Origin: Sphaerolaimus hirsutus
Taxonomy: Eukaryota; Nematoda; Chromadorea; Monhysterida; Sphaerolaimidae
Direction: 5' to 3'
Assembly: GCA_964036195.1 (NCBI GenBank)
Contig: OZ038452.1
Coordinates: 6,752,704-6,816,703, forward strand
DNA: 64,000 nucleotides
The notes below the pieces were generated by a model. The model did no database searches. It was not told where the DNA came from and was given only the letters and a program-made list of their open reading frames with translations. The translations under genes were made by a program, and so were the position numbers. Position 1 is the stretch's first letter, and each line of letters begins with the position of its first letter. Below, in pieces: positions 1 through 63,318 of the stretch.

Positions 1-708
1 CACGAGACAAAGTCGTTAGTAAACACAATCAGAGTCAAGGTAGTAAACAATAATGAAGTAAAACAAGCAGAGTCAAGGAAGTTAAACATTCATTAAAAGC
101 TTTTGTCTATTGATTGCTTCGTTAGCTTTCATTTTCACGCGCTATTTATTAATCTAAAAGTATCTATTTGTTTCATAGATTATAAATAGAAAGGAAACAT
201 TGCGTGATTTATAAACCATGTGTCACTTCTTTCCGGATCCTGTAAAATGTCACATGTCATTCAAAATGTCAAAAATCATGTAAAATGTTTTGACAAATGT
301 AAAAGGTCCTGCAAAAAATGACAGTTTACATGACTTTTGACACTTTACATGACATTAGACATTTTACAAGGTCTGGGAGTCTTTTGCCAGACGAAACTTT
401 TGCCATTGATTCTTCAAAAACTACGTGCTAATTGCATTTTCAGTTTCATGTAGGTAGCTGATCATCCCTAAATATTGACGAGTCCAATGTCAAGATTTCT
501 ACACACAACTTACAAATACTGTTTCTCCCAACTCTACAGTACTCTACTCGATTTTCTCTCCACCAAGGCACTAACAAACTAAAAACACTAATTCTATCAA
601 AAACTCAATTCACATCAAACATCAAATCGAACATCAAACATCAAAAGTGCCGTGTCCAAGCTGGCGGCCTTCAATGGGTCCGGCTTGCACTCGGACCCCA
701 CCAGCACC
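1..708. other. Upstream region and possible 5' UTR of the GPCR gene
   Basis: No coding gene is seen. About 231-380 is a copy of the splice-ready palindromic family (CCTGTAAAATG ... CATTTTACAAGG). From about 592 to 708 the receptor frame is open without an ATG and is probably 5' untranslated. No convincing TATA box or initiator could be assigned. Confidence 0.5.
231..380. mobile_element. Splice-ready palindromic element
   Basis: CCTGTAAAATGTCACATG on the left and GACATTTTACAAGGTCTGGG on the right, with a TGTCA-rich interior. The right AG site is altered to ACAAGG. Confidence 0.7.
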
Positions 709-3700: not shown

Positions 3701-6700
3701 CACCAAGCGCCAAAGGCGCCAGAGCATAATGGCGCCAAGCGACAGAAGCGCCATGGGGGCAGTCCCAAGCCCTGTAAAGTGTAAAGTAAACTGTCAAATG
3801 TTAAGTCAAATGCAAAGTGAAGTGTCAATCAAAACAAAAAAGAAAAGATTTTATTACTGAACTTTGCATGACAATTGACAGTTTACTTTGCATTTGACTT
3901 TACATTTGACATTTGACTTTGCATTTGACTTTACATTTGACACTTTACTTTACACTTTACAGGGCTTGGGACTGCCACCTGGCGTTGTTCCTTTGGCGCT
4001 AGCGCCAAGCGCCATGACGCTTTTCCATCACTACGGATGACATAACTTCTATTTTCCAAAAAAAACTGCTTAAAAAGTTTCGAAATTTTTTTAAATAACT
4101 TTCCAGGGATTTATGTCGGTTCTACCGGGTGGTTCAGAAATAAACGGCCTACCATATTACTCATTATGGAAATTCTGGTTCAGAAATATCAGCACTGTAA
4201 TAGCGCCATTTTTTACACTCGCTTGCTGCAATACAGCCATTGTTATAGCACTTAAAAGACAGAATAAACAATCTATGAGAACTATGATGCTGTCTATGGC
4301 TGTTGGGAAGTGAGTTTTTGGACTGAGTTTTCCGTTTTTCGCGTCACACAAGTTGACATTGGGTATTTATTCAACTGCATTCAATGTCAACTCAGAAATA
4401 AGTTGACGGCTTGCAGAACCATGTTCAACTACCCATGCTGCTATATCTCAAATCAAAGTGAATCAATAAATAAATCTGAATTTACATTACCAGTTCAATA
4501 ACACTCACTGTCGATTAGTGTGCGTAGCGCCATCGCCTCTAAACACACTAGTTGTCCATTGGTCAGCGGTCAACTGGAAAATTTATTTCGTAAAATATTT
4601 AATTCAGAGTAATGCATAATCTTTTAACACGTCTTAAAAAGCGTTTTGTGAACTGATGCACGTTTAAGACAAATATTTAGTTGACCGCTGGCCAACGGTC
4701 AACTTGTATTGCAGAGCATGCAATGGCGTATTTATAATGCTTTATTTTCGCCTAAATCACACCTGCAAATCTAACGTCGAAACACTTGGAGTTTTTTATG
4801 GAAATACCCAGTTATCATCCGTCTTCTGCACTGGCCGTTATGGATCATACTATCGTATCTCTTCTATTAGAATGGCGTAACTTGACTTGAACTATCTGGC
4901 AATAGTTGCATTGCATTATGTTCATATATTATAGTATTTACTCAAATGTATTTTTGGCGCTGTTCCAGTTTTTTTTCGACATGCCATTCACTTTCAGAAC
5001 CCTGCCAAATATATTATTTCAGAAAATTTCTCAAAATAGATTTATTTTCAAATTTCTCCGATATTATAAAAATTTCGTTATATTATTTAATATAAAAATC
5101 TAAATCTTATGTTTGTTTTATTTTGTGGTATTTTTTAAACTCTCAAAAATACTACAAAGAATATAATTAATTCTCGCTCTGTGGAAAATCCTGGAAAAAA
5201 AGTTACATCTTCTGATATTTTTTAAATACAAATCTCCCAGAAATTTTATAATTGCTATATGGGATATGGTAGATTTGATTGTGTGCGGCCGGTGGTGTAT
5301 GCCATTCTATTAGAAAAAACATGGCTCAGAATTTTTATGATTAATTCTCCCATTTTTAGCTGCCCGCTGCCGCCCAAAATTAGCACAGTGTCGCGAATAT
5401 CGAACCTAACTGCGCTTTCTCAAAATGGGTCAGCCATAAACATATTTTAGATCGCACTACTAGCTTTCTGGCCACCAGTGAAAAAGTATATACTACCGTA
5501 CTTCCTCGATTAAATTTCCATTGGATATCCCACATTCGATTAATCCTCTCCATGTTTATTCGGACCTGTGATTTATGTCTTGTGAAGACAATATCCCTCG
5601 ATTTATCCAACATCAAATTGGCTGTCAAAAATATACCCGAGTAGCTATTCAGAGGAAATACGGTAGATATGGCTAGTCAATTTATTTTTTTACCAGTTGA
5701 GCTTCAGAATATTTTACAATTTATAGCTTAAAATTCAGTTAAAGGCAGAAGTTGTAAATCTTTGGTTGATCTATGGCGTTACACCAATGGTTTCCGTTGC
5801 AATTATTGATATTGTCATGCGTTTATTATATTTACAGCGATACACACTTGGCCACGGCGCTTTTCATGTAGTTGGCGTCATGCCAAGCACCATTGCCGCC
5901 GCGGTAGGTTGCCTCCAGGTGCCAGTTCCGCAAAATGAGAAGTGAGAAGTGAAATGGCAAAGGCGAAGTAAAAGCGCAAAGGCCAAGTGAAATGGCAAGT
6001 GGATTGAGAAGGAAATTGGCAAAAGAGAATAGGGAAATTACTTTTTATTTATTTATTTTTTACTTAGCTTTTGCCAATTCACTTGCTCTTTTCACTTCGC
6101 CTTTGCCATTTCACGTGTCACTTCTCATTTTTCGGTGTAGCGCCAGTATGCTTTTTTCTGTGGCGTAGCGTAGCACCACGCCCCACGGTGTTCATGGCGC
6201 TAGGTGCTATATTGCAGCACTCCGTCAATAGGCACAACGGCACACAAGGCACAGTTAACTAGGCACAACGTCAAGTGAAAACTTTCAATGTTTCATATCA
6301 GAATATTTGACAGACTGGGTACATTTGGGTACCTGAATGTCGATATTTAGCCTACCATCACTCAACATTCTTATTTTATTTTTTCTCGTATTTTCATGGT
6401 TACGCATAGGGCACGTGCTAATGGGAGATCTGGGAAATGACCTTAATCAATGCCAATCCCAGATCTCTCATTTGCGCCAGAAAAAGTTAAATCTCGTATT
6501 TACACATATAAAACGGCACATGCAGAATGGTTAAGGCTGAAAATCTCGATGAAGGTATGGCAAAAATCAGGTAATTGTGTGGTCTCAAAATATAACTTTT
6601 TTCTAATACGAATTTACCTTGGATGGAATCTACTAAATCTGAATGTAAATTTGGGAGAAATGCTGAAACCTTTGTCCAGAAAAACACCATTAAAAAGCAA

Positions 6701-9700
6701 GACTTTGCCGTGAAATTCAACATTATTTATCAATAAAAAACGCTAAAGCCGTCTACGCGCATTTTTTATACTTTATTTGATACCTGAACAAAACAATCTC
6801 TCAATGTAAAATAAATAATACTTTATGGAACTGAAACCTTGGGAATTTGTCGATATCAGGTGTGCACAAACAAGTAATCCTGAAAATGTCAAAAAATTAA
6901 ATACCGTATTTCCTCGAAATACCCCCGGGGGTTTATTGTTTCAGAGTGAGAATTTTGAGAGAAAAACGTGAAAAATGCAACAATAACCACCATTTTTAAG
7001 TTTTTACAGCCTTATATAAGGAATGTAGATGGTATAAACGATGTTCTAACGTAACACAGTAAGTGTTTTGAACGTCTGTTATGCATTTCCCGGACCACAA
7101 ATCCATAGTGCCCATTTTGAGGGGGGGGGGGTATTTCGAGGAAATACGGTATATTATTTCTAAGATTTATAGCGTTTTTAAGCGTACGCGACCGAAGTTG
7201 TTAACGGAAATTTCCAAAGCTGATAAGTCTATTTTAAGCACATTTCAGTTTACCGGATTGTATACGAATCTCCGCAGCAGTAGCTAACTGGAACCATACT
7301 GGAAAACTTTCTTTGTGTTTGAAACAGATTGAAAAGCTTTGGACAACTCAGCTGTCAACTAGTTCCCTTGTATCCTTTATCACACATAAAGAATTAACCT
7401 TTTCCATGCCAAAAATTCACAATTAACAATTGAGTACATTTTCGGCAACTGCGAATTGGTCCCACACTTTAGATACCTGCTGAACACCATCATGCGTTTG
7501 GTCCCAGACGACGTTCGTATAAGGGCGGAAAAGTCAAAAGATGAACAATATAGAAAACGGACTATGGAATGGTCGGATATTAATTTTAGGGATTTGCACC
7601 TTTTTTGCATCCTCCAGACGTTCTAGGGAATGAAAATGTGTTAAATTTGGAGACTGTTTCCGAATTTCGGAAGCTGCCTGCGGTCTGCTAACTAGTGATG
7701 GAAAAGCGCCATGGCGCTGGCGCCTGGCGCTAGCGCCAAAGCAAAAAGCGCCATGGCGCTTTTGGCGCTTGGCGCTAAAACGCTCTGGCGCCATTGGCGC
7801 TTGGCGCTGGGGTTTGAGAAAGCGCCATGGCGCTTTTGGCGCTTGGCGCCATTTTCTGGTGGCGCTATTGGCGCCTGGCGCCGGCATTTTAAATGGCGCC
7901 AAAAAAGCGCCAACCATTTTAATAAAAAATTGTTATAATACGGTGAAATCGACACTGCAGTTGATCAATTTTAGGCAACTGAATAAATATTGATGAATAC
8001 CGTATTACCTCGAAATACCCCCATGGGGGTTTATTATTTCGCCAGCAAAATTTGAGGGGGGGTTAATTCGAGGGGGGGGTTTATTCAAGGGGGGTTTTTT
8101 ATTATTTCGCCAGAAAATTTCGTGGAATTCGTAGTAAAGAATACGCTATTTCTTACACAAAAACGGTAATAAATGTGAGAATATAGGTTATATTGGGGCT
8201 ATAGATGTACATCTGTACACAAATGAGCGTATAAGAGTAGCTGTGATGCAAATAAGTAGTAATAAATACATCATGTACATTGCATACATGATGTACATCA
8301 TTCCGGAGGGGGGGTATTTCGAGGGGGGGGGGTTTATTATTTCCCCAGCCCATTTTGAGGGGGGTTAATTCGAGGGGGGGATAATTCGAGGTAATACGGT
8401 ATTAGGGTTAGGGTTCAAACGGGATTGACTTTTCGGGATCGGGATCGGGATTCACTTTTTGAGATTTCGGGATCGGGATCGGGATCGGGATTGGGGTTTT
8501 GGGATCGGGATTGGTATTTTTGAGATTTCGGGATCAGGATCGGGATCGGGATTGGGGTTTCGGGATCGGGATCGGGATCGGGACTGGTAAATCCCGGAAT
8601 TTCACGGGATCCGGGATCGGGATCGGGATCCCGTTTGAACCCTAATCGGGATCGGGATTGGTTTTTTGAGATTTCGGGATCGGGATCGGGATTGGCCGGG
8701 ATTGGGGTCACGGGATCGGGATCGGGATTGGGATAGGCATTTTTCCGGGATTGGGATTGGGTTCTAGGGATAGAGATTTTGGCCATTTTTCTGGCATTCA
8801 CAGTTGTTCATAAAGGTCTCAAAACACTGTTGGATGCCAGAAAAGTGGCATAAAATTGACGCTGGGGGATTGCATCCACTTTTTTGCATGCAAAAACGTC
8901 ATTATTTCACTTTTTATGATTTCCACTAATTTTTCCGGGATCGGGATCCCGGACTTGGGAGTTTCTCGGGATCGGGATCGGGATTTGAAAACTTTTGGGA
9001 TCGGGATCGGGATTGGTATTTTTGAGATTTCGGGATCGGGATCGGGATCGGGGTTTCGGGATCGGGATCGGGACTGGTAAATCCCGGAATTTCACGGGAT
9101 CCGGGATTGGGATCGGGATCCCGTTTGAACCCTAATTAGGGTAGACTTTATATAAATAGATGTGAACATCAAATAAAAGCAGAGGTGTTAAAATCGCGGT
9201 AAATCCCCTTTTATGCTTTGCTCCCAATTCTTTCTTGCAGTCTAAATCAGGGGTTCAGTCTGGCGGGGGTTGGAGGGGGGTGGGTGGTGGTTACCCCCCA
9301 ACAAACGCTCCGGCTATCTATCTATCCCCGGTGCCGCTCAACTATCTATCTAACCTGAGGCTAAATTTTAGGCTACTATCGCTCGAACCACCCAGCCCCC
9401 CCCCCAAATCGACCAGATATATATCTCTCCAGAGCGGTTGATTAAGAAATTTTGCCCCGATTTAGTGGTTGTTTGAATGGGCAAAAGTTGAATAGACTAC
9501 TATGACTTCAACGGTACGTCACTCACAGTTAAGCACTCATTTTTCTACCATCAAATTGTAGAACAAATTTTTTGGCGCTGGCGCTATTGGCGCTTGGCGC
9601 CATCACCCTCTGGCGCCATTGGCGCTTGGCGCTGAGGTTCAGAAAAGCGCCATGGCGCTTTTGGCGCTTGGCGCTATTTTGCTCTGGCGCCATTGGCGCC

Positions 9701-12700
9701 TGGCGCCGGGGTCAGAAAAGCGCCATGGCGCTTTTGGCGCTTGGCGCCGAAAGCCTGGCGCTTTTTCCATCACTACTGCTAACTATGCTATTTTTGTGTA
9801 GGGAGATTTGTGTTTGGGTATTGCACACGTTATGGACCAAAGTTGTCAATTCATTTGAATGGGATGAAAAGGGTAAAATGACATTTTCTGGAAAATTCTG
9901 CAGAAAACAATAAAAATACATAATATTTAGGTATAGGTAATAAAAATAAAATCCTATCAAAAGCATATAGAAAATAAGCATATAATGTGCATATAGTAGA
10001 ATTCATGAAATACAATAAACCCAGTAATATACCTCTATCCATCATAACGCATGTCATACCCTTTTATTATTTTGATCATGAAATCAACTGAGTGTGCATC
10101 ATGCAACTAAACACAAATCAATTAATTGAATGGGTGTCGTGACGGTGAGATTTCGTTGAGAATTTTTTTCATAAACCATAAAAATTGGAGTCATGCCAAA
10201 TGCTTTGGGGGGTGCTTTTGTTCTGTTATGATTTGGAACTTCATCGGCTTGTGTGCACGATTCTAAGTTTGTATGCTAAATAGCTCTTATTTACATTTGC
10301 AAATATAAAACTGGCATTGCAAAATTGTAACTAGGTAGTCATGGTTGGATGTTTTATCCATTCATTTTATCCATTTTACGACTTATATTTACATTTATTG
10401 GCCAAAAACTGCGGCATATTTACTTTCGGTTCTAATGATTTGGTTCCAGTATTTTTGTTGTCATATCTTACGGTTTGTTCGATTCCGTTCAGTTAGACGA
10501 ATGGTAAATGTTTTTCTGCGGGACCGATACACATATACCCTTATTAAATGGACCCGTATAATTGGAACCCAACGTAAATTAAATCTAAAAATCATGAAAA
10601 TGAAACCCTGTCTTTGCGCCGATTACACACTCTTGCACACACAGTTTTCCATTGCAAATGTTTCGGCTGTCGGAACTTTCGAAGCCTGCTTACTGTAGCC
10701 ATAGGAAATTCATTTACAATATTGGTATAAATATTTATTTATGTATATACCACGTAGACAAAATAGACATTGATGCCCCACAAACCAGTTCCATCGCTAG
10801 TTGGAAAATTCCTCCAAAATTAAACAAATATTATTTAGTTCGGTTGATATTTACGTTCATTTAAACCCAGTACATTTAGTAGCCGAACCCAATCGTTTCC
10901 CAAACCCGCATATCAATCAATCAAGCCCCATCCACACAAACCATCCACAAACTAGTCGGGTCAAAAGTGCCCGACAAGTGCCCGACAAGTGCCCGACACC
11001 CGACAAGTGTCCCGCCACTCAGGGTGGCTCGTCACGCGGCCATAGCCGTCGGTCGGGCGACCCGAGCGCTCAGCGTCAGCATGCATCAGCCCGACGTCGG
11101 GCACGCTGGGCAACATCGCAATGGGGCCGCTTTGAATGGCTCTGTCGGGCGGCCCTTTTTGCCCGCCGCCGGGTGCGCGTCCCACTTTTGCACTTGGTTT
11201 TTGGGCTTAATTGTGGAGGTTTTGTTTTTTTTGTGCGTGACACTTAGCGGCTAGTGGCTAATTTCAGTTTGTGTTTTGCATCGTGGTTTGGATTTGTGTC
11301 GTTCGTTGTGACTGTTAAATTTACACTGAACCTACCGTGTTGTGCAACGTACGCGGTGCAATGCAATTATTTGACGGTAACCCTCATTTCATGTGTTGAA
11401 ATTTTTTGACCCGACAAGTTTTTTCGGGTAATCACCAGGCATCATTCAACACTTCACAATTCGAAAAATTGCTTCTCTGTATTTGTTAGTTGTTCGAATT
11501 TATAAAAAATATATTTGTATTTGTTTGAAAAGTCGATAACGAAAAATCTGAAAGTTACAGTAATTCGATCCACAGTAATTCTATTCACCGTATAAGAAAT
11601 TTCAAACAGCATATCGACATTAGATACCGTATTTCCTCGAAATACCCCCGGGGGGTTTATTGTTTCAGAGTGAGAATTTTGAGGGGGGGTTAAACGAGGG
11701 GGGGGGTATTTCGAGGGGGGGGTTTATTATTTCGCCAGAAATTTTTTGAAAACCAAGTACTAAATTGTCGTCTGAAACGTACGCAGACGTCGAAAATGCA
11801 ACAAAAATCGCCATTTATAAGACTCTAAAGACTTGTATAAGTGTGTAGACGTATAATCACTGTTCTCACACAACAGAGTCGTCGTTTTTAACGTGTGTTT
11901 TGCATTACCCAGATGACAAACCGCAGCCTTTGTCATTTACGTTCTCTATACACTAAATTTGGGGGGGGGTATTTCGAGGGGGGGGTTTAAAAGTTCATAG
12001 TGTCCATTTTGAGGGGGGGTATTTCGAGGAAATACGGTAGCTTGATTTTGCCCTGCACTTTGACCAAATGGTCATATATGCAATAAATTGTATGACAAAC
12101 TGCAATTGCTTGCAATTTTATGTATATACCGAAATTAGGTTTTTATTTTATTTGTTGTTTTACCCACCCACGTGCATAACTATTAACCCTAGTGTTCCAA
12201 TAAAAGTAACCCCACCCGCAAATCGATGTTCACCTAACACATTAGCACACATATAACACCTCATGTAAATCGGTTTTCGTGTGCAAATGGGAGATTTGTG
12301 GGTGCAAAATACTCTCATTTGACTACAAGCATCGGCTATTTTATCCCCCATTTGACTTGCAAATCGATTTGCACAAGCATTCACTAACTTTCACCCTCAT
12401 TTGTGTTTTAAGATTTGCACAATTTCTTTTAGTTGCGGGGTGGCTTGGCTGCGGCGCGAAATTTTATTTACCCGACGAGCTTTTTTTGGGCAACGACCCG
12501 ATTTGAAATTAATTAAAACCGTCACGGATTGATGTTACTCTGGGGCGCAAGTGGATAAGTGACAACAAAAGTAGTCAGTTGTGAGTAAAGTGACAAATGG
12601 AATTGGGAAGGACAAGTAAATTTTTGGATATGAAAGTACCTGTCACTTATAACTTGCGAAAAAAAACCCTGAACTACATTACGTCGAGTAGCAAAAAATT

Positions 12701-15700
12701 CAACTGTATTGCATCGGGTTGGCCGGAAAAAGTGTCGGGTAAATTAAATTTTGAGCCCCCTGCAGCACGTTTTCATTAACATATGCAGCTGACAAAAGGG
12801 TGGGAAAGAGTGAATGGAACGGTAAGTTGCCGTCAGGTCTTTTTACCGGCAATTACCGGTAACGACAGTTCATACACTGTTACACCTACGATAAATTTTC
12901 CCACCCTATTTGTCGCCTGTGTATGCGCACCGCTTTTGTCAATCTTTCGTGCTTTCACACATGCGAAACTGTTGTCGCTATTCGTTGGGCATAAAAGAGG
13001 GATGTAAAAAATCGTTATTTCTTTGATTTTTTTTCAAACTTGACAACAAAGAATGGATCATCGCACCATCCCCCATGGATGCCACTGAAAAAATCAGCAC
13101 TATTTATAAACATTATAAATAGCACGTTTGCAGTGTGCAGCACGGCCGGTCAGCCCCTGCAACTAGAAGAAACAGAAAAAAGAAAAAAAAATCACTAACT
13201 CCGCCCACTTTCACACTCAGGGAAGCTGCTGAACAAACGAAAAAATCAGTCAGGGCGGCCACAAGAATGCTCATTTTGGTTGTGACATGCTATTTGATCG
13301 CCAATACTCTCAGCGTAATAATCACGACTTGGGAATTCTACGATGACAAATCGCTGTTGGCGCAGAAAAAATTTTACACTTTGAGCGTGGATTTTGTCAA
13401 TGTGCTGACTGGTTTGTGAAGGGGGGGGGGGTTGGGGGGGTATAGATTGGTGATTGTAAAAAGTCGCCAAGAAGTTTGTGCTAAGCGCAAAATTCACCAT
13501 GGCGCTGTTTGCATTGTGCTTGTGTCGGCGCCAGTGCCAGGATATTTTGAGGTGCAAAAATTAAATACCTTGAATTTAGTCAAATGTAAAAAAAATAATT
13601 CACATCTACCTACATTTAATTAATTCAATCCCACCCGCAGTGTGGGCAGCGGCAGTACGGTTACCGATTTACTGGTCCTGCAATCAACAGATACGAGTCG
13701 AGCTAAAGGCTATCTTCCAAACTGACTTGCCCAAGGTAAACCGGTTTCTTTAGTCCCCCCCCCCTCCCGACCAAAATTGGTGACGCCAGAAAACCCGGTC
13801 CCAGAATAATTTTGGCGCGAAAAGGAATGAATACTTTCAAAGGTAAAATTTAACTTTACTTAAGGCTTAACTCAAATCCTGAGAAAGTTTGTTGAGCTGA
13901 GTGACTTCGTGACGTAAAAATTTGCCCGCCCACAACCAAATGTGATTTTGAGTGGAAATTGCCCCTACCACCCACACGGAAAAAAGCTAATGCCAAAACC
14001 CAACTTCCATCAAAAAATTGTGACGCCAAATTTTACGTCTCCCAAATTGGAGACTTACTCCCTGTCCAGGGTTCAATATCGTATCCTGTAAAGTGTCAGA
14101 TGTCAGATTGTGCAAACTGCAACAATAAAAGTTTTTTTTCTTGTTTTTTTTCACCAAGAATGTGACATTTTACATGGCACTCAATTCAATACGACATTTC
14201 ACAGGGCGCGGGACTGGCGCCCGATATGTTGATCAGTGGCGAAGTGGCAAGGTTCCCCCATAATCCATAAAAATACCCCCCCCCCCCCCGCAGATCGCAG
14301 CAGCCTGCTGCTGCGCGCCAGTGCACTGTTTCAGTTTCACCGCGGAAAAGACCAAACAGGCGCCAGTCCCACACCCTGTAAAGTGCCCTGTAAAATGTTA
14401 GATGTCACGCAAAGTGCCAAAGGTCGTGTAAAATGCCCTGCAAAATGGCAACCGAGTTGCCATTTTGCAGGGCATTTTACATGACTTTTGACACTTTGCA
14501 TGACATCCAACATTTTACAGGGCACTTTACAGGGTCTGGGATTGTCCCAGGCGGCGAGCGGCAGCAAGCGGCTCACCTTGACCGTCGTCCGCAGGCACTC
14601 CCATTTGGTCCAACAGAACTCTGGGCCCAATGTAACTGGGACCACAGATGTGAGGGCCGAATGTGATAGACCTATTAGTGGGGTCAGAGTGGTCGGGCAG
14701 GGGGTTGAGGCGGTGGGTGGGGTTTGTTGTTTTGGTTTGGGTGCTTTTTGGGGTGGGGTATTCGTGGCGGGCTATTTAGTTGTGGTTTTTAAATGTCAGA
14801 ATTCAAAAGTCTGGTTGGAGAATGTCTGGCAGAAAAATACTATTGTACTGGTGGCTTGATTCTTCAGCTGTGTTCAAGTGCAGTTTATGCACAATTTGAA
14901 CTGCTCTTCAAGCTTGTAATAGGAATAACCCCTTACTACATGTATTTATGTCATGTACACACATGAAAAAACACAAATGCACTAAAAATGGGGAAACTAG
15001 ATACAATTGAAATGTGACTGAATCATTGCATAGCACTGCAAGTTAAGCGGCGCAAATGTTAAATATAAATAATATTTAAATAACACTGTTATAGACACAC
15101 AACCTATTACTTTTAATTAGGTGTCATAGTTCCACAATTACCGCAATAACCCCCCCCCCCCCCCATCAAACAGCAAGTTCACCATGGCGCCGCTTCAAGA
15201 CTTGCCTCCCGCCGCGCTTCACCCATCTATTCCGCCTACTCATACCAGCAGGTTTGTGTGCGAATCGTCACAAAGAACCGTGGCATAGGACAATTTGACA
15301 CAGTAATGTCCTTACAAGGGACAGTTTGACACGTACCGAACGTGAAGCGTGACCGCTTTTGGCCCCTGGCGCCCTATTGGCGCGTGGCGCTGAGGTATGG
15401 AAAAACGTTGTGGCACTTTTGGCGCTTGGTGCTGTTTTTGCATGGCACCAGGGACAAAAAGCCTGGCGCTTGTGGCGCCAAAAGCGTTATTTTGCTGTGG
15501 CTCCACTGGCGGTTGGCGCTAAAGGTCGAAAAAGCGCCATGGCGCATTTGGCGCTTGGGGTAAAACTTCTGGCGCTTTTTTACATCACTACTCATCTCTC
15601 ACCCCCCCCCCGAACCCCACAGACACCCCACCACCCTCACGACCAACAGTACCAACAGCGGTTTTCACCGCACAACTACAACTCGGCCACGGGGAACAAC

Positions 15701-18700
15701 TCGGCCGCCAGCTCCAACTTCGGCTCGCCCGCCAAGCTGCTGATGGACGCCGCCGCCGTGCCGCTACTGACTGGGAATAGGGGGGTAGATGGGGGCCATG
15801 TTCAAGGGAGGGATGTGAGAGTGGTCGCCGTTGAGGCTACCGCTGGTGGGTTGGGGGGGGGGGGGTATTTCGGTTGGGATGGATTTGCAGTTTGATGGGG
15901 GGGGTAGAAAATTGATTTGAGTAAACAATACTGAATGAAAAATAAATTTATTCTGCTTTTGTCGACAACAATTTCAAAATAATTGTATGTGAAATTTCGT
16001 TGCTCCTTCATTTAATATATATATACATAGGTATACTCGGCGGACCGCACGCTATGCATTTTTCTGAAGGAAACACTCCATCATGACGTCATCGTTAATA
16101 GAGTAAAACTTGTTCCAGCAAAAAAAACCGTTTCGGGAAAAACATTCGTCGCTTGTACGCGACTCCGCCTTTTTCTTTTTAAAATATTTTTTTTTTGTGA
16201 AATTGCATACATAAGTATCGTACTCGCGCGTTTTAGACTAAGACATAAATAATTTTGGGCGCATACTTTGCGGTCCGCCGAGTATACTTTTATTTAACAA
16301 TAAATAAGGTATAAGTCGGTACGTAAAAAAAGTACTTAAATTACCGCATTTTAAAGAAATTTAATTATAAATATTGAAGCTGAAAAACAGGAAATTACAG
16401 ATAAAAAATGAGCTGAGCAGTGGTCACGTGGTGAAAATTGACCAACGGTAAAAAGTTGTTTTCCATTTTATCTAAATCCTCAGAAATCGAATCATATGAG
16501 GCATAATGTGGTCACTGGTGAGAAAGTGATTACCGTATTTCTTCTAATAGAAGAGCAGGTGGTCACTTATAGATGGTCAATATTTTTGCTTTTTATGTAC
16601 ATCCCTTGGATTTTCTGAAATACTCTGTGAATGTGAAGTACCCAGTGCTCCTGAAAAAGTGCGCGTTCGCATGGGTACTGGTAAAATCAAAGTATTTTAC
16701 CCATGAGCATTTACTAAGTACGTACTAAGTTTACTATTTTAGAGAAAAAAATAATACCCATTCTCTTTCCACACTTACCGTATTACCTCGAAATACCCCC
16801 ATGGGGGTTTATTATTTCGCCAGCAAAATTTGAGGGGGGTTAATTCGAGGGCGGACTTATTCGAGGGGGAGGGGTATTCCCCAGCGCATTTTGAGGGGGG
16901 TCAAATCAAGGGGGATAATTCGAGGTAATACGGTAACCCAAGCTCGTGTAATTGACCCTGGTTAAATATAATACTTGCAGCGGAGCGGAATAGTGTTCAA
17001 ATGGATTAGTGCAGTGAGTCCTCGGATAATCCAGTATGGGAGCGTGCATTTCACCGCGTCATATTGCTTTACACCCCCAGCCGGAATTACAGCTCAGCGG
17101 CGTTTGACGTGAAATGATGACGTCGTAAAATTGATTACATCAAAATAGACAAAGGTACAGCATTGAAATTTCAGAATTAGATAATTCTAGTAATTGTGTG
17201 TAATGTCCCAAAAAAAATTTATCAAATAATCATTATCTAAGAAGTTTTTGATTTAACGTCAAAATTTTTTGGTGACGTAAAATGTTTGACGTGAAATGTT
17301 GACGTAGAATGTGTAAATTTTGATGTAAAATTAATAACTTATTAAATAATAATAATTTTCTTAATTTTTTTTTAGGACATTACACACAATTACTAGAACT
17401 ATCAAATTCTGAAATTTCAATGCTGTACCTATGTCTATTTTGATGTAATCAATTTTACGACGTCATCATTTCACGTCAAACGCCGCTGAGCTGTAATTCC
17501 GGCTTAACGATGACAAAAGCTTTGGAAAAAGTGTTTTTTTCTAAAGTGACTTTAGAATTTTTTTTTTTTGCGAAAATCGTTTTCGGATTTTAGAATTTTT
17601 GTCATCGTTACATACACCCCACGCCGCTGGTTGAATTTTCGCGATATCAAATTTATGTTGAAATAGAGCTGAAAATGTCGAAAAGAGAACTCTCGAAAGA
17701 TTGTTTTTTATTACCTAGATTGGTGTATATGAAGGGTGTGCTTCTAAAAGTACCGATCTACAAAAAATCGATTTTGAGATAATCGCGATTGAAAGTTTGG
17801 AGTATGCAATACCCATACATGGGTATTGGCTATGGGAATTTTGGGTATGGGTATTTCGGCCATATTGTTGGGTATCCACATGCATGGGTATAATCATTCA
17901 TTATACACATAACACTAGCTATATAAAATTTAGTGAATTGTATTTTTGTAGTACAGTACATTTTAAAGGAACAAATTGGTAATAGCATGTAGATCGGTAT
18001 TTTTTCAAGCACAAAATCAGAAAGCTGTAGATCGGTACTTTTACCCATAATAAAAAAGCACAAAATGAGTTATTGCGCAACCGGACGCCGATCTAACATT
18101 GGTACTTTTAGAAGCACAAAAAAAATGTGCAGATCGGTACATTTTAAAGAACAATTTTGAAAAAAGTGTGTAGATCGGTACTTTTAAAGACACAAAAGCT
18201 GAAAAAGCTTGTAGATCGGTACTTTAAAAATTTCAAAAACTGTATTTTGCGATTTTTTTGCTTTTTTCGACCCCCCATATCTCAAAATTGAATTTCGCAC
18301 CCCCCACATATTATATATATTTTTGAAGCGCATGTTTATGGGGACGCCAAAAATGGTCCTAACTCAAATTTGAAAAATTTGTAGATCGGTACTTTTAGAA
18401 GCACACCCTTCATATGTATTTATATTCAATCATTCATATGCGCGATATCGGTGCAAAATTAAAATGTCCAGTTTAAAACATCATTAGAAATGATAACGTA
18501 AGATAATTTCAAACGATAACTTACTCTATGAAAACAAACAGACACACAATTTCACCCGATCCTTTCATAAACACCTTTTCGACGAATTTATTTTTCACGG
18601 CACTTTTTAGTTTAATTTCAACTTCACGCAGCGTTTGCGTTTGCGTTTTAAATCTATCCTCGCACACATCACTTAGCCTGGCGATAACAGCCCAGCTTTG

Positions 18701-20358: not shown

Positions 20359-20372
20359 CTTCACACTTGACA

Positions 20373-20563
20373 TATACTCGGCGGACAGCACACCTAGTAT
20401 GAAAACCTACCATAATTTAATGAGTAAAATCTTGTGATAAATTTCGTAATTTATTCTTCCATAGTATAAATGAAATATAATGATGAAAAAATGTAAAAAA
20501 TGGTTCATTATTCAGATGGGTTATGGTAGGTTTTCATACTAAGTGTGATGTCCGCCGAGTATA
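20373..20563. mobile_element. TATACTCGGCGGAC element with an inner second terminal pair
   Basis: Outer termini TATACTCGGCGGACAGCACA and ATGTCCGCCGAGTATA. Inner pair CTACCATAATTTAATGA and CAGATGGGTTATGGTAG. Confidence 0.82.
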
Positions 20564-20844
20564 CATAACGTGGTTTTACATCTGTCTCCACATTTTACAT
20601 CTGTTCCCAGTGCATTTACCTAATGATAAATGATAGGTTTTCAAATGATGAGGTATTCTTCACGTTTATAAATATTGTGGAGACGTTATTTTCTGTCCAA
20701 ATGCTATTTCAGACAAATTATTTACGATATTACCTAGTTATGTAGTTTTAACTTTTTAACATGAGTTGTATCCATTATGTTATTATTTCTGGGGGCGAAT
20801 GAACAGACAGGGAATTTATGTAATTTAACAAACGATGTCAGGTT

Positions 20845-22183
20845 TAGTGATGTAAAAAGCGCCAGACTTTTGGCGCCAAGCGCCAAAAGCGCCATGGCGC
20901 TTTTGGCATGCGAGCGCCAAGCGCCAATGGCGCCACAGCAAAATAGCGCCAAGCGCCAAAAGCGCCATGGCGCTTTTCTATACCATGGCGCCAAGCGCCA
21001 ATAGCGCCAGCGCCAAAAAATTTTGCTGCATAAAATGCAGCGATGCAAATGCAGTGCTATTGCTTGCTATCTATTTGTTTGTCAACAGGTTCCCATCCCA
21101 ATTTAAAGCTTGCTGACTAGTAACACTATCCAGTGTTGTATACACATATACCATATTTCCTTGAAATACCCCCCTTCAATTAACCCCCCTCGAAATACAC
21201 CCCATCTGGAATAAGGTAGATCATGTATCCAATGAACATGAGATCCACCTTCCCAGACAAGTTCACCACCCATTTTTTTATTTCATTTCGAATGCAATAG
21301 CTCTGTCCATGGGGGTGTTCTAAAGCTGAAACTTTGTATAGGTATATAAAGTTGTAAGACCACTCTACTCCCCAACAATGGGGGAGGTGCGGAGACTCAC
21401 TACAGGGGATGCTATCTATGATAATATGACTATGGAATGATCTATGATAATATGACCAAAATATATCCTATTTGGTCAATTAATTACGTTTTGGGTACAA
21501 AAAAACTATACTTTACTACGACCATTCATAAAAATCCCCCCGGAATAAGCCCCCCTCGAAACTCCCCTCAAAATTTGCACCCTGAAAAAATAAACCCCCT
21601 GGGTGTATTTTGAGGAAATACGGTAGGTACTTCATGCCAGTACTTCATTCCACAGCAACAATACAACTTCATTTGCAATATAATGCAACACTATGCATTT
21701 GAACGCTGTTCGTCGGCTCGTCATCAAGCCTTGAATTGGGATGAAAACCAGTTGACATAAAATGTCGTTGAAAACTAGTGCGTGTATGCCCATTTTATGG
21801 TGAACGTTTTGAATATCCTTGCAATTGCATGGACATGGTTTACAAAATAAGCAAGTAGAGGGTTTGTTCTTCTTGTAACACACTTACAGTAACACATTTA
21901 CTTATGTAACTCATGCAGGCAAGGTCTGTTTACATAAGAAAAATGTTTATTTTTTGTACTACTTGGCGCTTTTTTGGCGCCTTATAAAACGCTAGCGCCA
22001 AGCGCCAATGGCGCCACGACATCATAGCGCCAAGCGCCAAAAGCGCCATGGCGCTTTTTCGTAGCACAGCGCCGAGCGCCAATGGCGCCACAGCAAAAAG
22101 GCGCCAAGCGCCAAAAGCGCCATGGCGCGTTTTGCTTTGGCGCTAGCGCCAAGCGCCAGCGCCATGGCGCTTTTACATCACTA
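20845..22183. mobile_element. hAT-like element, GGCGCC family, with nested insertion
   Basis: Starts TAGTGATGTAAAAAGCGCC, ends GCGCTTTTACATCACTA, and is flanked by GTCAGGTT on both sides (20837-20844 and 22184-22191). The GGCGCC arms are at 20855-21020 and 21961-22183. The element at 21149-21625 is inserted between them. Confidence 0.87.
21149..21625. mobile_element. MITE with TACC(G/A)TATTTCC termini, nested in 20845-22183
   Basis: Left TACCATATTTCCTTGAAATA, right TTTTGAGGAAATACGGTA. The interior differs from the main subfamily and resembles 40000-40186. Confidence 0.78.
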
Positions 22184-27867: not shown

Positions 27868-30800
27868 CTGCGGGGGTTTTGGGGGGTTTGAAATGGGTTT
27901 GTGATTGGTTATGTGGATTCATTTTGTAGGTCTCTTGGTTGAGAAAAACTTTTTATATAATTTTATAAAATTTATAATTTTTTAGATGAATAATTTCATG
28001 TGTACATATACATTTAAAGGTAGGAAATCTGAGTTGTTAAAATAAACTAAACTTCTGCCGCCACATATTTGCAGTTCAAGTTGGCCCACTGAGCCACAAA
28101 AAAATATAGATAGAAAAAGCTATGAAAATATCCCAAAATTATAAGAAAATGCGCCAAGATTAACAGCTTTTTCCAATCACTCATCGCCCACCACATTTTT
28201 TCTAGCAAACAATGTAAATAAAACCATGGCAGAACAACAAAACCAACAACATTGCCGCAGAATCGACCAAATGTTTGTTCACCGTCGAACACCTCCACGT
28301 AGTCGTACTCGCAGTTGCCTTCGTGCTCCAAATCGAAGTTTGTGAACCTGCGAACAATTTTTGAATGGAAGAAAGTGCACGGGCGAAAGTGTAAAATGTC
28401 AGATGCCCTGCAAAATTTCTTTTTATTGCGTGCTTTATGTTTTACATTTGACATTTGACAGATCTGTGCGGCATTTTACAGGTCCGGAATTTGCAACTAA
28501 GTGTTACTGTAGGGCAGTGCTGAACTCTACTAGTAAAGTAAAGTAGTGGCAAATGTCATGCAAATGTCAATAATTAAAGAAAAATGATTTTATAACAGAA
28601 CTTATGAGATTTTGGACGACATTTGACAAATTTGTATTCACATTTTCTTGATATTTGACACTTCAATTTTCACTTACAGGGTATGCACTTACGAGTGTGC
28701 GTCTTATTTATTGAATCGCTTACAACTCGTCACTTGTCCACTTGCGTAACTGGCCCCAGGAACTTTAAATTCCCATCACTCCAATGCCCTGCAAAGCAAC
28801 TTCTAAAACGCCAACCTCAATCTAACGGCCATGTCGCTGGTGGGCGCGTGTATGGTCCAACTGCAGGCCTGTTTGGTTGGGTACTGGCCGCCGCCGTAGA
28901 TCGCGTGCGAGTAGATGAAGCCCACGGACTCGACTGCGTGCAGCTCGCCGCCGCACACTGAGAGTTTTGGATGTAGAATATTTTAATTTTCTAGAATAGT
29001 TTAATTTTGAGTGGCATGGGTTTAAATGGGAAAATTTTTATTTTTCTTAATAGAGCAAGAAACGTATCTGACAACGTTTTTTTTTAAATATCAGATTGCA
29101 TTTCAGTAATTTATACTTTTGATACTTTTTACACACAGAAATTACATCGGAGATCACAATAAAAGAAAAACATTGGTTTTTTAATATTCTTTGATAAACC
29201 ATGCGCCGTTTTCTCAAACTTTCTCAAATCAAAAAATTCATCACTAAATTTTTCAGAAAACAAACAACAGGAAAAAGCTACCGCAACTCCTCCCTTTCTG
29301 AGATTTCCATTGAAAATCTAACATTTGCCAAGAATTACAAAAATGTAAAAAGTATACATACTCCCACTTTCTACGTGATTTTATTTGGCAAAACGATATG
29401 CTGATTTCCATGCAAAGCGTTAGCTCTGTGTAGGTATTGTTAAAAACGGGCTGTGCTAAATAATGTCGGGCAATCAAATTTACCCCCCCCCCCCTCAAAA
29501 AAGCCCCCCCCCCACCAACCACTAGTATACTGCGCCTTGAATCCCTTCCTAGACACGCTATTATCCGTGGTGAACACCATGTACAGTTCATTGCCGCCGG
29601 TGCGTACAGGGGCCGGTCTTTTGGTGCCGCAAAAGCGAGCCAACTCCGTCGCTGATTCGCTGCTGCCGTCGTAGAACTCCACCCTGTCGTAGCGGCACGT
29701 TTGATGGCGTTCTAGTTCGAAATCGTCGAATTCCTGCGGGGGGGGGGGGGTTGTTTTTTGACGAATTTGTGTTTTGAAGACATTTGAGCTTTCCAGAAAG
29801 GATCATTTTCTTAGTTGTCGGACTCCTCATTCCGGTGAACTCAAATGTGTTCAAAGCTTATCTCTAAGTTTCCGAATTGCGGTTATAAACTAGTGTGCGT
29901 GGGCTCAAAAAGTGCACTTTAAGACCAGGTTACTTAAAAGCGACAAATTGATGTAAAGGCTTGGTTAAATTTCAAATGCGCGGTCAAGTCAAGTGAAAAG
30001 TAAAATTGATCGTAAACATTCGAATGGTTTGGCAGTTAAATATGAAAAGGGGTGCCCGACGAGACGCCTTCATAAAGGGTGATATGTTTCATGGCTTTGT
30101 TTCAGCACGTAAATTCTCAATTTTCAGCTTAAAAAAGCATTCAAACAAAAGTTAAATTTCTGAAAAAATGTGTAACTTTTTGTTCGCAATTCATAACATA
30201 CGGTGCAAGGCATGCATAAAAAACAAAACCCTCAAACAACCCCCACGCACCAACTGAATCCTATGACCAGGCGTAGTAACAATATGCCAAATACAAGTCT
30301 GTTTATCCATATAATGATGTGGGTAATTGGGACTGTGCACCAAACCATTGGGTGCGTCGATTTGATGTTTGCATCCCCCCTCCTTGCAATTGTGTCCGTC
30401 CTCTGCTAGCACGTAGCCGCTGTGACATTCGCACGCGTAGCTGCCGATCGTGTTCTTGCAGATTTGCTGGCACCCCCCGTTGTTAAGGTCGCACTCGTCC
30501 CGGTCTGGGGGGTTCCGTTTTTTTGTGCTTATTTTGCGGGGGGTGGCGGGGTCGGGTAACTCAATAGATTGTAGTGGGCACATTTTCAGTGCGAAATTGG
30601 TTGTTGCAAAATAAATATAGATTATTTTAAGAAAATCTCATTCAAAATAATTTCAGAAAATACCCCAAAAAGTTAATATTTAAGATAATTAAGATAGAAA
30701 CGTTTTAAAATAGATATCACCCAAGAATCTGGGGCAAATGTTTCTGGCAAACACAAATTACTGGCGCCGCTTCAAAAGCCGGCCCGCGCCGTGTGAAATA

Positions 30801-33800
30801 AAATGTAAAATACCAGACAAAGTTGTGAAATGCCATGTAAAAGTAATTAGGTAGTTTTTAATTACAGTAAGAATTTTACAATCCTACTTTTTACAGGCAC
30901 CAGCCTCAGCTTACATAAAATTTCTTGCGCTGTTTTAGAAAATTGAAATACCAACAAATCCTCACAAATAAAACCACCAACCAGTGAAGAAGATCGCCGC
31001 AAATCCACTCTTTTGAACAGTAGAATCAGAACTGAAAATCAGTCGCAAACGATTTGTTTCCGATGTGACCGCTGGCTGGGCGCCCTTGCCGCAGAAAATG
31101 CCGTGTCTTTTTGCCGCTTTTCCGGAAATTCCCACTGATATAACTTCTACGGAGTCGTAGTTGCACTCGTTCTGAAGATTTGGTTGATTTTTGGGAAAAT
31201 TTTGGTTTTTAAACTCTGATATAATTTAGGACATGAATTTTACACTATTGTACTTTTTTTGCAGGGAAACAATGATTTTTTATTACGGCACAAAACCAAT
31301 AAAATAACAACAAAAAAACTCACATTCATTCCCTCCACCTCAAAATGGGTAAAATTGAGGGTGATCTTGTAACTCGGCAAAGCCTCAATCTCCCACACGC
31401 ATTTCTTATTAGCCGGGTATAGATTCGGGAAATTCGGGCTGGTTACGGTACCGTTATCCGCTTTTATATAGCCTCCGCAAGCGGCGTCGCAACGTCTTTG
31501 ATCCGGTGCCAATTCGAAACCGATATCGCATTCGCAGCGGTAGCCGCCCAATTCATTGACGCATTTTTGTTCGCAGCCATGTTCCCCAGTTTGACACTCG
31601 TCGAATTCTGGTGGGGGGGGGGGTTAATTGAGGGAGAAGGTGGGGGTCGTGGGGAGTATTTACCGTGCTGGAACGTGTGGCGGTTTAATGTACCGTATAG
31701 AGGCACTTCCAGAACGTGTAAAACGTAAAATGTCATGCAAAGTGTCAAAAGTCATGTAAAAATTTATTTGAAGGCGTAAAACATAAGTAAATTTGCCATT
31801 TTACATGCCATTTTACATAACATTTTACATAACGTTTGACACTTTGCATGACACTTTACGTTTTACACGTTATTACTAAGAATAACCACCACAAATCCCA
31901 GTTAGTCCACAGTGAAAAATACGCACCTTTGATGAACATCAGCGAAAATCCCTTCTTCTGCACGGTGTTGTCGCTAACAAAATGTATACGCATTTTGTTG
32001 TGCGTGGAATTCAGGTCGCCCCTAGGAATTGTACCTTTTCCATTTGGCTGTGCTTTTTGGGAACCGCAGTACAGAGCTGCAAAGGTATATGGGGTATTTT
32101 GAAGGAGTTGCTGATAATATTTTTCTGCTAAATATTTAAAGTATTAGAGGGTATTTCGAGGGGGATAATTCAAAACATACCGTGTATACGTATTTATATC
32201 TTGCAAAACTGTGTTTGCTGCGTGTTGTAATGATATGGAAATTATCACACAAAAAATTACACATTCAATCATACCAATAAAACATGATCAACTTATCATA
32301 CAGCAGTAAAACGTCACCCCTCGAATTTCCCTCAATAAAACCCGAAATTCCGAAAGAAAAACACCCCTTTAAATAAGTCCCCCTCAAAAATCCCCTAACA
32401 ATCTACAAAAACCACCGACCAATCTGATGGGCATTCTCCTCCGCACCAGAATAAATCTCCAATCTATCATAAATGCAATCATCGTGACCTTCCAGTTCGA
32501 AAAGGTTGAATTTGACCGCCACTTGGTACCCCTGGGGTACCAAAATGTCCCACCAACAATCGACATTTGCACGGTAATCGTGCGGGTACCCGGGGGATTC
32601 GATTACACCCCTGTCGGCGGCTAAGACACCCCCGCAGCGCACTGGGAGGGGGGGGGGCGGAGTTTAGTTTGAACTGAGTGACATATGTATATGGTTTTTT
32701 GGCGGGCAGCCCGATAAGTTTTTTTTTGGGTGTTTTCAAGTGACAGGTTTTGTTGTTGTAATTGCCAGAGTTTGTCGATTGTCTGTCAGTCAATTTTTTT
32801 GTTGCAAATGACAGATTCGAGAATTTTTAATCCAGAAATCTCGATAATTGGAAAATTCGAAATTCGCAACACACAACCAACTATAATAAGTCAGATACAA
32901 GCTGGGCACCGGTTGCAATATAGTCGTAGCCAGCGCGTCCATGCTGTCGGGCCCCACGAGCCCTGCATCGGGCTGGTCCAATGGGGAGGCTGATGCGCGA
33001 AACTCCACCCACAAACGCTCGCCCGACGACGAGAACACCGAGGGCGTGTGTCGCGAACCGCACAGACGGGCTGGGGGTTGTTGTTTGTTTGTTTTTTGGG
33101 GGGGGGGTTGGAGATGGATAATTGACAAAAAAAGTGGTAAGTGATTGGCGAGGTTGAAGTGAGATAGGTTAAATTACCGAATGTAATTAATTGTAACTTG
33201 GCAAATGAAACTACACTTCGAGCTTATTCACTTGCGTTTTGCAGAATTTGCGTTTTTGATTTCATAAGATACCTAAACTTGAATGCGACAGTTCTATGTT
33301 CTGCGTTACCGTATTTCCTCGAAATACTCCCAGGGGGTTTATTTTTGCAGGGTGAGAATTTTGAGTTGAGGGGGTAAACAATGGTGGGGTACATCGAGGT
33401 ATAAATTCATAGTGTCAATTTTGAGGGAGGTATTTCGAGAGGGGGGTATTTCGAAGGGTTATTTCGAGGATATACTTATTCTCAAAAATCTACTCAAACC
33501 ACAAAAACTAAAAACCTAAAAAGGGTCATGCCCCCTCCAAAAACCACAACCCCCTCACCCACCAATCAGCGGGCTGCCCGCATAAAACCCATCCCTGATC
33601 TCCAAATAATTCTCAGTGGCCCTTTTACACTCGGCCCCGACACCCAATTCGGGCAGAACTAATTGGGTTACATTCACTGTGACAGTTTCACCTCGCGAAG
33701 CGATTATACGCCATTGACAGTGGCGTTTTGCGGTGCGGCGGGTGCGGCTGCGTCGTTGTGTGGGCGCTGTGGGGGGGGGTGTTTGAGGGGGTGGTTTGGG

Positions 33801-49908: not shown

Positions 49909-50168
49909 TGACTAATTAAATAATTGGTCACTCTAATTAAGTCGTCTCTCGCAAAATTTCATTGGAAATTGTGTTTCACAGTCTGAGTCACACGCACAAG
50001 GTTACGGTAACACGGTTTTGGACGCAAAATCGTTAGTAGCGCGTGCATATTTACTTACGATTTTACAAGTACAAGTCACAAGTAACGAAATATTTATTCT
50101 TATTATTTTATTTCGTTCACAGCTAGCTACCACTTTGCTAATAAGCAATAAATCGATCGAACTTTGCT

Positions 50169-53531: not shown

Positions 53532-53564
53532 GGCCCAGTTCTCACACCACTGGCGCTTGGATTA

Positions 53565-63157: not shown

Positions 63158-63318
63158 AACTCCCAGACCCGGCAAAATGTCCTTTGTCACGTAAATCACG
63201 TTGTCAAGTAAATTTCAAATGTCACGCAAAGTGTCAAAAGTCGTGTAAAATGTCATGTATACATTTTACACTCTGACACTTTGACATTTGACACTTTACA
63301 CGGTGTGCGATTGGCAGC
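63158..63318. mobile_element. Palindromic element of the splice-ready family
   Basis: ACTCCCAGACCCGGCAAAATG on the left (GT lost) and GACACTTTACACGGTGTGCG on the right; interior of TGTCA and AAAATGTC motifs. Confidence 0.6.

What the first reader, a model, noticed from the sequence alone, without database searches (positions are those of the whole stretch)
14294..14649. A palindromic transposon appears to act as an intron inside a GPCR exon
Sequence shows two phase-0 coding halves (14294-about 14358 and about 14549-14649) separated by a palindromic element of about 190 bp. Its own ends give CCT|GTAAAG at 14378 and TTTACAG|GGT at 14533. Splicing there removes 155 nt and leaves a 12-codon in-frame addition; retention would shift the frame. 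Introners with splice sites in their terminal repeats are known from some eukaryotes. That this copy is a recent intron gain is inference.
Basis: partly seen in the sequence, partly recalled or inferred. Interest (0 to 1): 0.9.

Follow-up and report, generated by a model that had tools for sequence, protein, structure and literature searches.

The report
Palindromic transposon that makes introns
A small hairpin-shaped transposon sits inside coding exons of several genes of a roundworm-like animal, including this receptor gene, and fits those genes as a ready-made intron; this bears on where new introns come from.

Summary
In detail: a near-perfect palindrome interrupts the C-terminal tail exon of a nematode-like GPCR. 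The window's genome (348 Mb) is held and has many copies. Of 40 copies read (39 fetched plus this one), the consensus is 189 bp, 184/189 self-complementary, flanked by a CWG triplet (identical on both sides in 24). Removing element plus one triplet gives a conserved domain running across the junction in 11 loci (3 with weak scores), among them PKG, an intermediate filament, a SMAD, NUP210, TRPV and an SDR. I read it as an introner family: the element carries the 5' splice site (GTGCC), the duplicated triplet supplies the 3' end. For the window copy the likely intron is 14360-14550 (191 nt, GC-AG because GT became GC), restoring AAA CAG|GCG GCG. Unexplained: 6 of the 11 loci end in CTG (GT-TG) and 1 is antisense (GG-AG). 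So the spliceosome tolerates TG here, or the hairpin guides removal. No RNA data were available.

The parts
13641..13735 (+). GPCR exon E7 (TM7, helix 8), ends phase 0 at AAG|GTAAAC
   Evidence: aligns to C. angaria and other nematode receptors
14276..14293 (+). poly-C tract + GCAG 3' splice site of the tail exon
   Evidence: highest of 2,887 plus-strand AGs, matrix from 12 other introns; same poly-C + CAG form at minus-strand acceptors
14294..14359 (+). left half of the interrupted tail exon (22 codons, IAAACCCAPVHCFSFTAEKTKQ)
   Evidence: phase 0; first 21 codons score 0.365 bits/codon, reached by 0.56% of 1249 overlapping stop-free intron windows (7 of 359 of those with GC >= 0.5); a reverse frame scores 0.468
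14357..14359 (+). left copy of the CAG triplet
14360..14547 (+). palindromic introner copy (188 bp; family consensus 189 bp)
14548..14550 (+). right copy of the CAG triplet = proposed 3' splice site
14360..14550 (+). proposed intron (191 nt, CAG|GCGCCA...TCCCAG|GCG, GC-AG); removal gives AAA CAG|GCG GCG
   Evidence: family structure; frame
14361..14361 (+). C where the family consensus has T: 5' splice site GC instead of GT
   Evidence: GT 34, GC 3, GG 3 of 40
   Evidence: motifs present; donor score -1.71
14399..14401 (+). TAG met in phase 0 if the element is retained
14551..14649 (+). right half of the interrupted tail exon (33 codons), phase-0 donor GTGAGG at 14650
15623..15895 (+). further tail exon, open to TGA at 15893-15895
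   Evidence: found only at this place in the genome
14063..14220 (-). older, diverged copy of the same family in the intron before 14294
   Evidence: 27.7 bits

Best explanation
The element is a young copy of a non-autonomous, nearly perfectly palindromic DNA transposon (MITE) that works as an introner. It inserted at a CAG in the exon coding for the receptor's C-terminal tail and duplicated that CAG. In the pre-mRNA the unit from the first base of the element through the right-hand CAG (14360-14550) is removed, joining AAA CAG to GCG GCG with no change to the protein. The element supplies the 5' splice site at its very first bases (GTGCC; GCGCC here), a C-rich end supplies the tract before the 3' site, and the duplicated CAG supplies the 3' splice site. 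Shown: family structure, flanking triplet, exonic position of conserved-gene copies, continuous domains after removal. Inferred: that removal happens in RNA, that the spliceosome does it, and that the GC donor is used in this copy.
For: Genome search with the window piece: 40 of 2,429 candidates scored; the long rows are copies of the element. Of 40 copies (39 fetched, plus the window) 31 have exactly the standard length; consensus 189 bp, 184/189 self-complementary; left end GT in 34, GC in 3, GG in 3; right 3-mer CAG in 21, CTG in 11, other in 8; left and right 3-mers identical in 24. Joining flanks without element and one triplet gives a domain running across the junction in 11 loci: L022 intermediate filament (E 1.4e-15; vimentin without gap at the junction), L025 kinase (E 1.1e-5; PKG1 E 2.3e-19, no gap at the junction), L031 NUP210 (7.1e-9), L045 VWA (4.9e-5), L014 attractin (9.7e-12, only 7 residues left of the junction), L004:2467-2281 TRPV (Inactive 3.1e-15, gap-free), L012 (RE28239p 1.2e-5, gap-free; Pfam MH2 only E 0.2; SMAD by recall), L041 SDR (1.7e-5), and weakly L050:3716-3514 Frag1 (0.0028), L044 7tm_1 (0.0081), L037 Frag1 (0.022). 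Of the Pfam scores, those of L025, L041, L050, L044 and L037 are under Pfam's own cut-offs. The PKG locus also has cyclic-nucleotide-binding and further kinase exons within 9 kb. Sense orientation: 10 of these 11 loci, and 27 of 38 copies by codon score. Six copies have CTG, CGG or CCG on the left but CAG on the right (L023, L026, L027, L030, L042, L046; L030 and L046 are near-duplicates), as expected if AG is selected at the 3' end. For the window copy, acceptor 14294 is the best plus-strand AG and both halves share phase 0.
Against: No RNA. Six of the 11 loci end in CTG and one is antisense, so only 4 of 11 have canonical ends at the seamless boundary (GT-AG in 3, GC-AG in 1). Three copies changed away from CAG on the right while the left is CAG (L017 AAG, L034 CTG, L047 ATG). 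Not every copy looks exonic: the best coding frame is open for 20 or more codons on both sides in 26 of 38, not in 12. An independent codon-score test of frame agreement across the junction gave only 14 of 38 (6.3 expected), and the window copy failed it. Orientation of each copy was set by matching its ends to the consensus, so the GT count is partly by construction. Sense frames of 27 of the 39 fetched copies and antisense frames of 20 were sent to Pfam, so the sense tally is not from equal effort. No convincing paralogue or empty site of this receptor tail was found, and no relative fixes the tail. The stem buries both splice sites.
Confidence: 0.72

Rival explanations
1. Hairpin-guided removal: the long inverted repeat folds in the mRNA and the element is cut out and the ends ligated without the usual splice-site rules, as in SOS splicing of DNA transposons in animals. 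GT and AG at the ends are then incidental.
For: Stem of -164 kcal/mol; 7 of 11 domain-spanning loci have non-canonical ends (6 CTG, 1 antisense GG-AG) yet the host domains are continuous after removal. SOS splicing is described in a review whose passages I read (PMC13247085).
Against: Sense bias (10 of 11 loci; 27 of 38 by codon score) and the change of the right-hand triplet to CAG in six copies point to the spliceosome.
Confidence: 0.2
2. One reading: splicing from CCT|GTAAAG (14378) to TTTACAG|GGT (14533), adding 12 codons.
For: Both motifs exist and the result is in frame in this copy. The GT donor may be preferred now that the edge donor is GC. Acceptor score 5.5 against 3.4 for the edge site.
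Against: Donor scores -1.71; 76% of all GTs in the window score at least as high, though 2 of 12 real donors score -2.0 when left out. In a standard copy these sites give 37 extra nt, which would break the reading frame of the other genes.
Confidence: 0.12
3. The insertion is retained and truncates the receptor tail at the TAG in the element (14399-14401); the downstream exons are dying or this is a damaged allele.
For: Both edge and internal donors are weak; the seven-helix core is complete before the element.
Against: Downstream tail exons 14551-14649 and 15623-15895 remain open in the right phase; another copy sits in a PKG gene ahead of most of its kinase domain.
Confidence: 0.12
4. No intron gain: 14294-14359 is not coding, E7 splices straight to 14551, and the element merely sits in an old intron.
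For: TCCCAG|GCG at 14551 is also phase 0 and scores 3.45; no homologue fixes the left half.
Against: The strongest plus-strand acceptor precedes 14294; codon score of the left half is exon-like, though a reverse frame scores higher; the CAG/CAG triplet rejoins the two halves in one frame.
Confidence: 0.1

Closest known systems
Introners of DNA-transposon origin (Gozashti et al. 2022, PMC9860276: section 7 and passages of abstract and other sections seen)
   Same: Repeated element that is itself the intron; terminal inverted repeats; short target duplication; one splice site carried by the element, the other co-opted from the duplication; GC donors occur; some families change protein length.
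   Different: Here almost the whole element is one palindrome whose two ends differ by a few bases, giving it a direction; the CWG target yields CAG or CTG at the 3' end, so 6 of 11 domain-spanning loci lack AG. That paper reports introners in only two animal groups; the word nematode does not occur in its main text.
Introners of Aureococcus that carry both splice sites and add 12 bp (same paper, Fig. 2F legend)
   Different: The family here is best explained by seamless removal; the 12-codon addition would be a peculiarity of one copy.
SOS splicing of DNA transposons (Zhao et al., Nature 2026, cited in PMC13247085; original not held)
   Same: Inserted DNA transposon removed from host mRNA in animals; that hairpin-forming ends are the signal is my recall.
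   Different: Here there is a directional bias and a splice-site-like end; whether SOS splicing shows such a bias I could not check.
PIF/Harbinger-type MITEs (recalled, no call)
   Same: 3-bp target duplication of CWG/TWA type, short non-autonomous element with inverted repeats.
   Different: No transposase was looked for; near-total palindrome.

Membership tests
Introner (intron-generating transposon) | Many similar copies in one genome at exon-interrupting positions | tested here: met
   40 copies scored of 2,429 candidates; joined flanks give a domain across the junction in 11 loci; 26 of 38 copies have a best frame open 20+ codons on both sides
Introner (intron-generating transposon) | The element spans the whole intron, end to end | tested here: met
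   PKG and TRPV align without gap at the junction when exactly element plus one triplet is taken out
Introner (intron-generating transposon) | Terminal inverted repeats and target duplication | tested here: met
   184/189 self-complementary; 3-mers identical in 24 of 40, different in 16 of 40
Introner (intron-generating transposon) | Canonical GT-AG at the element boundary | tested here: inconclusive
   GT in 34 of 40 left ends; right CAG in 21, CTG in 11 of 40; 4 of 11 domain-spanning loci canonical (3 GT-AG, 1 GC-AG)
Introner (intron-generating transposon) | Spliced in RNA | not testable with these tools
   No RNA-seq available
Introner (intron-generating transposon) | Intron absent at that position in relatives | not tested
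   Relatives' gene structures not held; no convincing paralogue of the GPCR tail
SOS-spliced transposon | Inverted repeats able to pair in the mRNA | tested here: met
   (predicted fold of the window copy)
SOS-spliced transposon | Removal independent of orientation and splice-site letters | tested here: inconclusive
   10 of 11 sense, but 6 CTG and 1 antisense
PIF/Harbinger MITE | 3-bp CWG/TWA target duplication | tested here: met
   identical triplets CAG or CTG in 24 of 40; the family rule itself is recalled
PIF/Harbinger MITE | Mobilised by a Harbinger transposase | not tested
   no transposase search was made

The most novel reading that the evidence does not exclude
The family makes introns that do not need GT-AG: the palindrome folds in the pre-mRNA and directs seamless removal at the CWG boundary whether the 3' end is CAG or CTG, and at least once in antisense. 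Exonic transposons in conserved genes would then be tolerated through hairpin-guided excision and only later refined into ordinary GT-AG introns, as the changes to CAG at the right end suggest.
Probability: 0.2. Interest if true: 0.93.

Novelty: new variant of a known kind. Interest (0 to 1): 0.8.

Why it matters
How new introns arise is a long-standing question, and one large survey found introners in only two animal groups (PMC9860276). A young family (the 40 copies read are a median 5.8% from consensus) in a nematode-like animal with a chromosome-scale genome offers many datable candidate gains in conserved genes. Because the insertion triplet (CWG) produces CAG and CTG ends side by side, it is a natural experiment on which 3' ends the animal spliceosome, or a hairpin-guided system, accepts.

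Tried and rejected
Tail orthology: three protein searches found nematode receptors (C. angaria E 7.4e-54, Anisakis, Diploscapter; also unnamed ones) but nothing that fixes the tail; P0004 aligned over it only loosely, and the last search had no hit. GPCR family by Pfam: 7tm_1 E 1.3e-4, below its cut-off; the FMRFamide-receptor label is recalled. Direct-repeat test at the window copy alone: 6-bp CAGGCG shared, p 0.017 by shuffling; later replaced by the triplet seen in the family. I first took the duplication as 5 bp (CCWGG) and changed to 3 bp when mismatched copies were listed. Nematode SL1 RNA (RF00198): no match, and no control rang, so it decides nothing. Pattern counts of CAG and CTG left ends and the family PF01484 did not complete. 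A count of 13 of 13 sense was dropped: it rested on frames chosen mostly in sense and on one-sided domains; after antisense frames of 20 copies were sent the tally for domain-spanning loci is 10 sense, 1 antisense. Two of the 10 (TRPV, second Frag1) are extra copies found in fetched loci, for which only sense frames were sent. L010, L016, L024 and L029 have domains on one side of the junction only and are not counted; L035 gave only weak, inconsistent matches. L038 and L046 are near-duplicates and were left out of the 38-copy tests.

Full report
What is there. The window is part of a 348-Mb genome, G000:C3:6752704-6816703. A seven-helix receptor gene runs on the plus strand from about 1.2 kb to 15.9 kb; the named relatives found are nematode receptors (the FMRFamide-receptor label is recalled), so I call the animal nematode-like without having tested its phylum further. 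TM7 ends at 13735 in phase 0. The tail exon starts at 14294 after a poly-C + GCAG acceptor, the best of 2,887 plus-strand AGs by a matrix from 12 other introns. That exon is interrupted by a palindrome that folds at -164 kcal/mol.

What the family shows. Searching the genome with the window piece scored 40 of 2,429 candidates; the long matches besides the window are 85-93% identical. I fetched 39 copies with flanks. With the window copy this makes 40. Aligned, they give a 189-bp consensus, 184/189 self-complementary, with the ends GTGCCAGTCCC and GGGACTGCCCC. The flanking triplet is CWG and the same on both sides in 24 of 40; in 16 it differs. Element plus triplet is 192 nt in a standard copy; 31 of 40 have the standard length. 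Median divergence from the consensus is 5.8%, range 4.2-9.5%; the window copy is at 8.0%.

Copies in exons. Joined flanks have a median GC of 0.51 (0.39-0.68), and in 26 of 38 copies the best coding frame is open for 20 or more codons on both sides, 22 of these in sense; 12 copies do not pass. Taking out the element and one triplet gives a conserved domain across the junction in 11 loci: intermediate filament (vimentin), PKG, VWA, NUP210, a SMAD-like MH2 end, attractin, TRPV, SDR, and with weak scores two sites in one Frag1/PGAP2-like gene (PGAP2 recalled) and a 7tm_1 receptor. The PKG and TRPV alignments have no gap at the junction. Cyclic-nucleotide-binding and further kinase exons lie within 9 kb of the PKG copy, and in the genomic frame the element there holds three stops, so it must leave the mRNA if that gene works. 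The SDR gene has another exon downstream.

Mechanism. In sense orientation the removable unit reads CWG|GTGCC...GCCCC CWG|exon. With CAG this is a seamless GT-AG intron: the donor comes from the element, the acceptor from the duplicated triplet. Sense copies prevail: 10 of 11 domain-spanning loci (p 0.012) and 27 of 38 copies by codon score (p 0.014), though sense frames were tested more widely than antisense ones (27 of 39 against 20 of 39 fetched copies). In six copies (two of them near-duplicates) the left triplet is CTG, CGG or CCG but the right one is CAG, as if the 3' end had been improved to AG; in three the left is CAG and the right is AAG, CTG or ATG. This is roughly how an introner is expected to behave.

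The window copy. Left triplet CAG 14357-14359, right triplet CAG 14548-14550, element 14360-14547. One base is missing at the right end and the donor T is C. Removal of 14360-14550 gives ...ACC AAA CAG|GCG GCG AGC..., phase 0, no added residues. In this copy they leave 36 nt; in a standard copy 37 nt, a frame shift. They remain a possible fallback for a copy whose edge donor has become GC.

Results against this reading. Six of the 11 loci end in CTG, so their seamless intron is GT-TG; one (SDR, L041) is antisense and would be GG-AG. Only 4 of 11 are canonical at the boundary. A codon-score test of frame agreement across the junction, blind to homology, gave 14 of 38 where 6.3 are expected, and the window copy did not pass it. 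The left half of the window exon scores as coding, but one of its reverse frames scores higher. No RNA and no orthologous gene structure were available, and no convincing paralogue of the tail was found in the genome by the one search made. Hence the spliceosome is inferred, not shown, and hairpin-guided excision as in SOS splicing (review passages, PMC13247085) stays open.

Known or new. Introners from DNA transposons with one carried and one co-opted splice site are known (PMC9860276), in only two animal groups in that survey. Three searches of the held library, judged by titles and starts of abstracts, showed no introner report for a nematode; PMC9169325 on nematode introns speaks of introners only as a general example in the passages I saw. 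Papers outside the library may exist. The near-total palindrome and the CAG/CTG ends set this family apart, so I call it a new variant of a known kind.

Noticed in passing
window 50145-59870 (+): Two very long adjoining ORFs (1128 and 2112 aa) that look like a gag-pol retroelement of BEL/Pao type (label recalled); observed only.
   Followed up: no
window 28047-35611 (-): Exons that read like a tolloid/BMP1-like gene (CUB, EGF, astacin-like peptides, recognised by eye), used here for codon and splice-site statistics.
   Followed up: partly
window 14276, 29738, 31613, 32648: Runs of 10-14 C just before CAG acceptors: a C-only polypyrimidine tract at several acceptors of this window.
   Followed up: partly
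window 7743-7901, 9579-9748, 21994-22158: 74-bp minisatellites rich in GGCGCC/AGCGCC, and TTCGAGGGGGGG repeats elsewhere.
   Followed up: no
L050 (C16:5308000-5317999): This Frag1-type locus holds two copies that interrupt coding frames plus several diverged copies, suggesting repeated gains in one gene.
   Followed up: partly
L030 and L046 (C1:7828190 and C1:7861540); L036 and L038: Pairs of near-identical loci with the same insertion: the element was duplicated together with its host sequence.
   Followed up: no
window 239-379, 2030-2091, 3756-3978, 31702-31869, 63157-63316: Diverged copies of the same family elsewhere in the window, several in introns.
   Followed up: partly
window 17079-17504, 20364-20572, 35850-36043: Other inverted-repeat elements (148-nt arms; TATACTCGGCGGAC family), possible further MITE families.
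   Followed up: no
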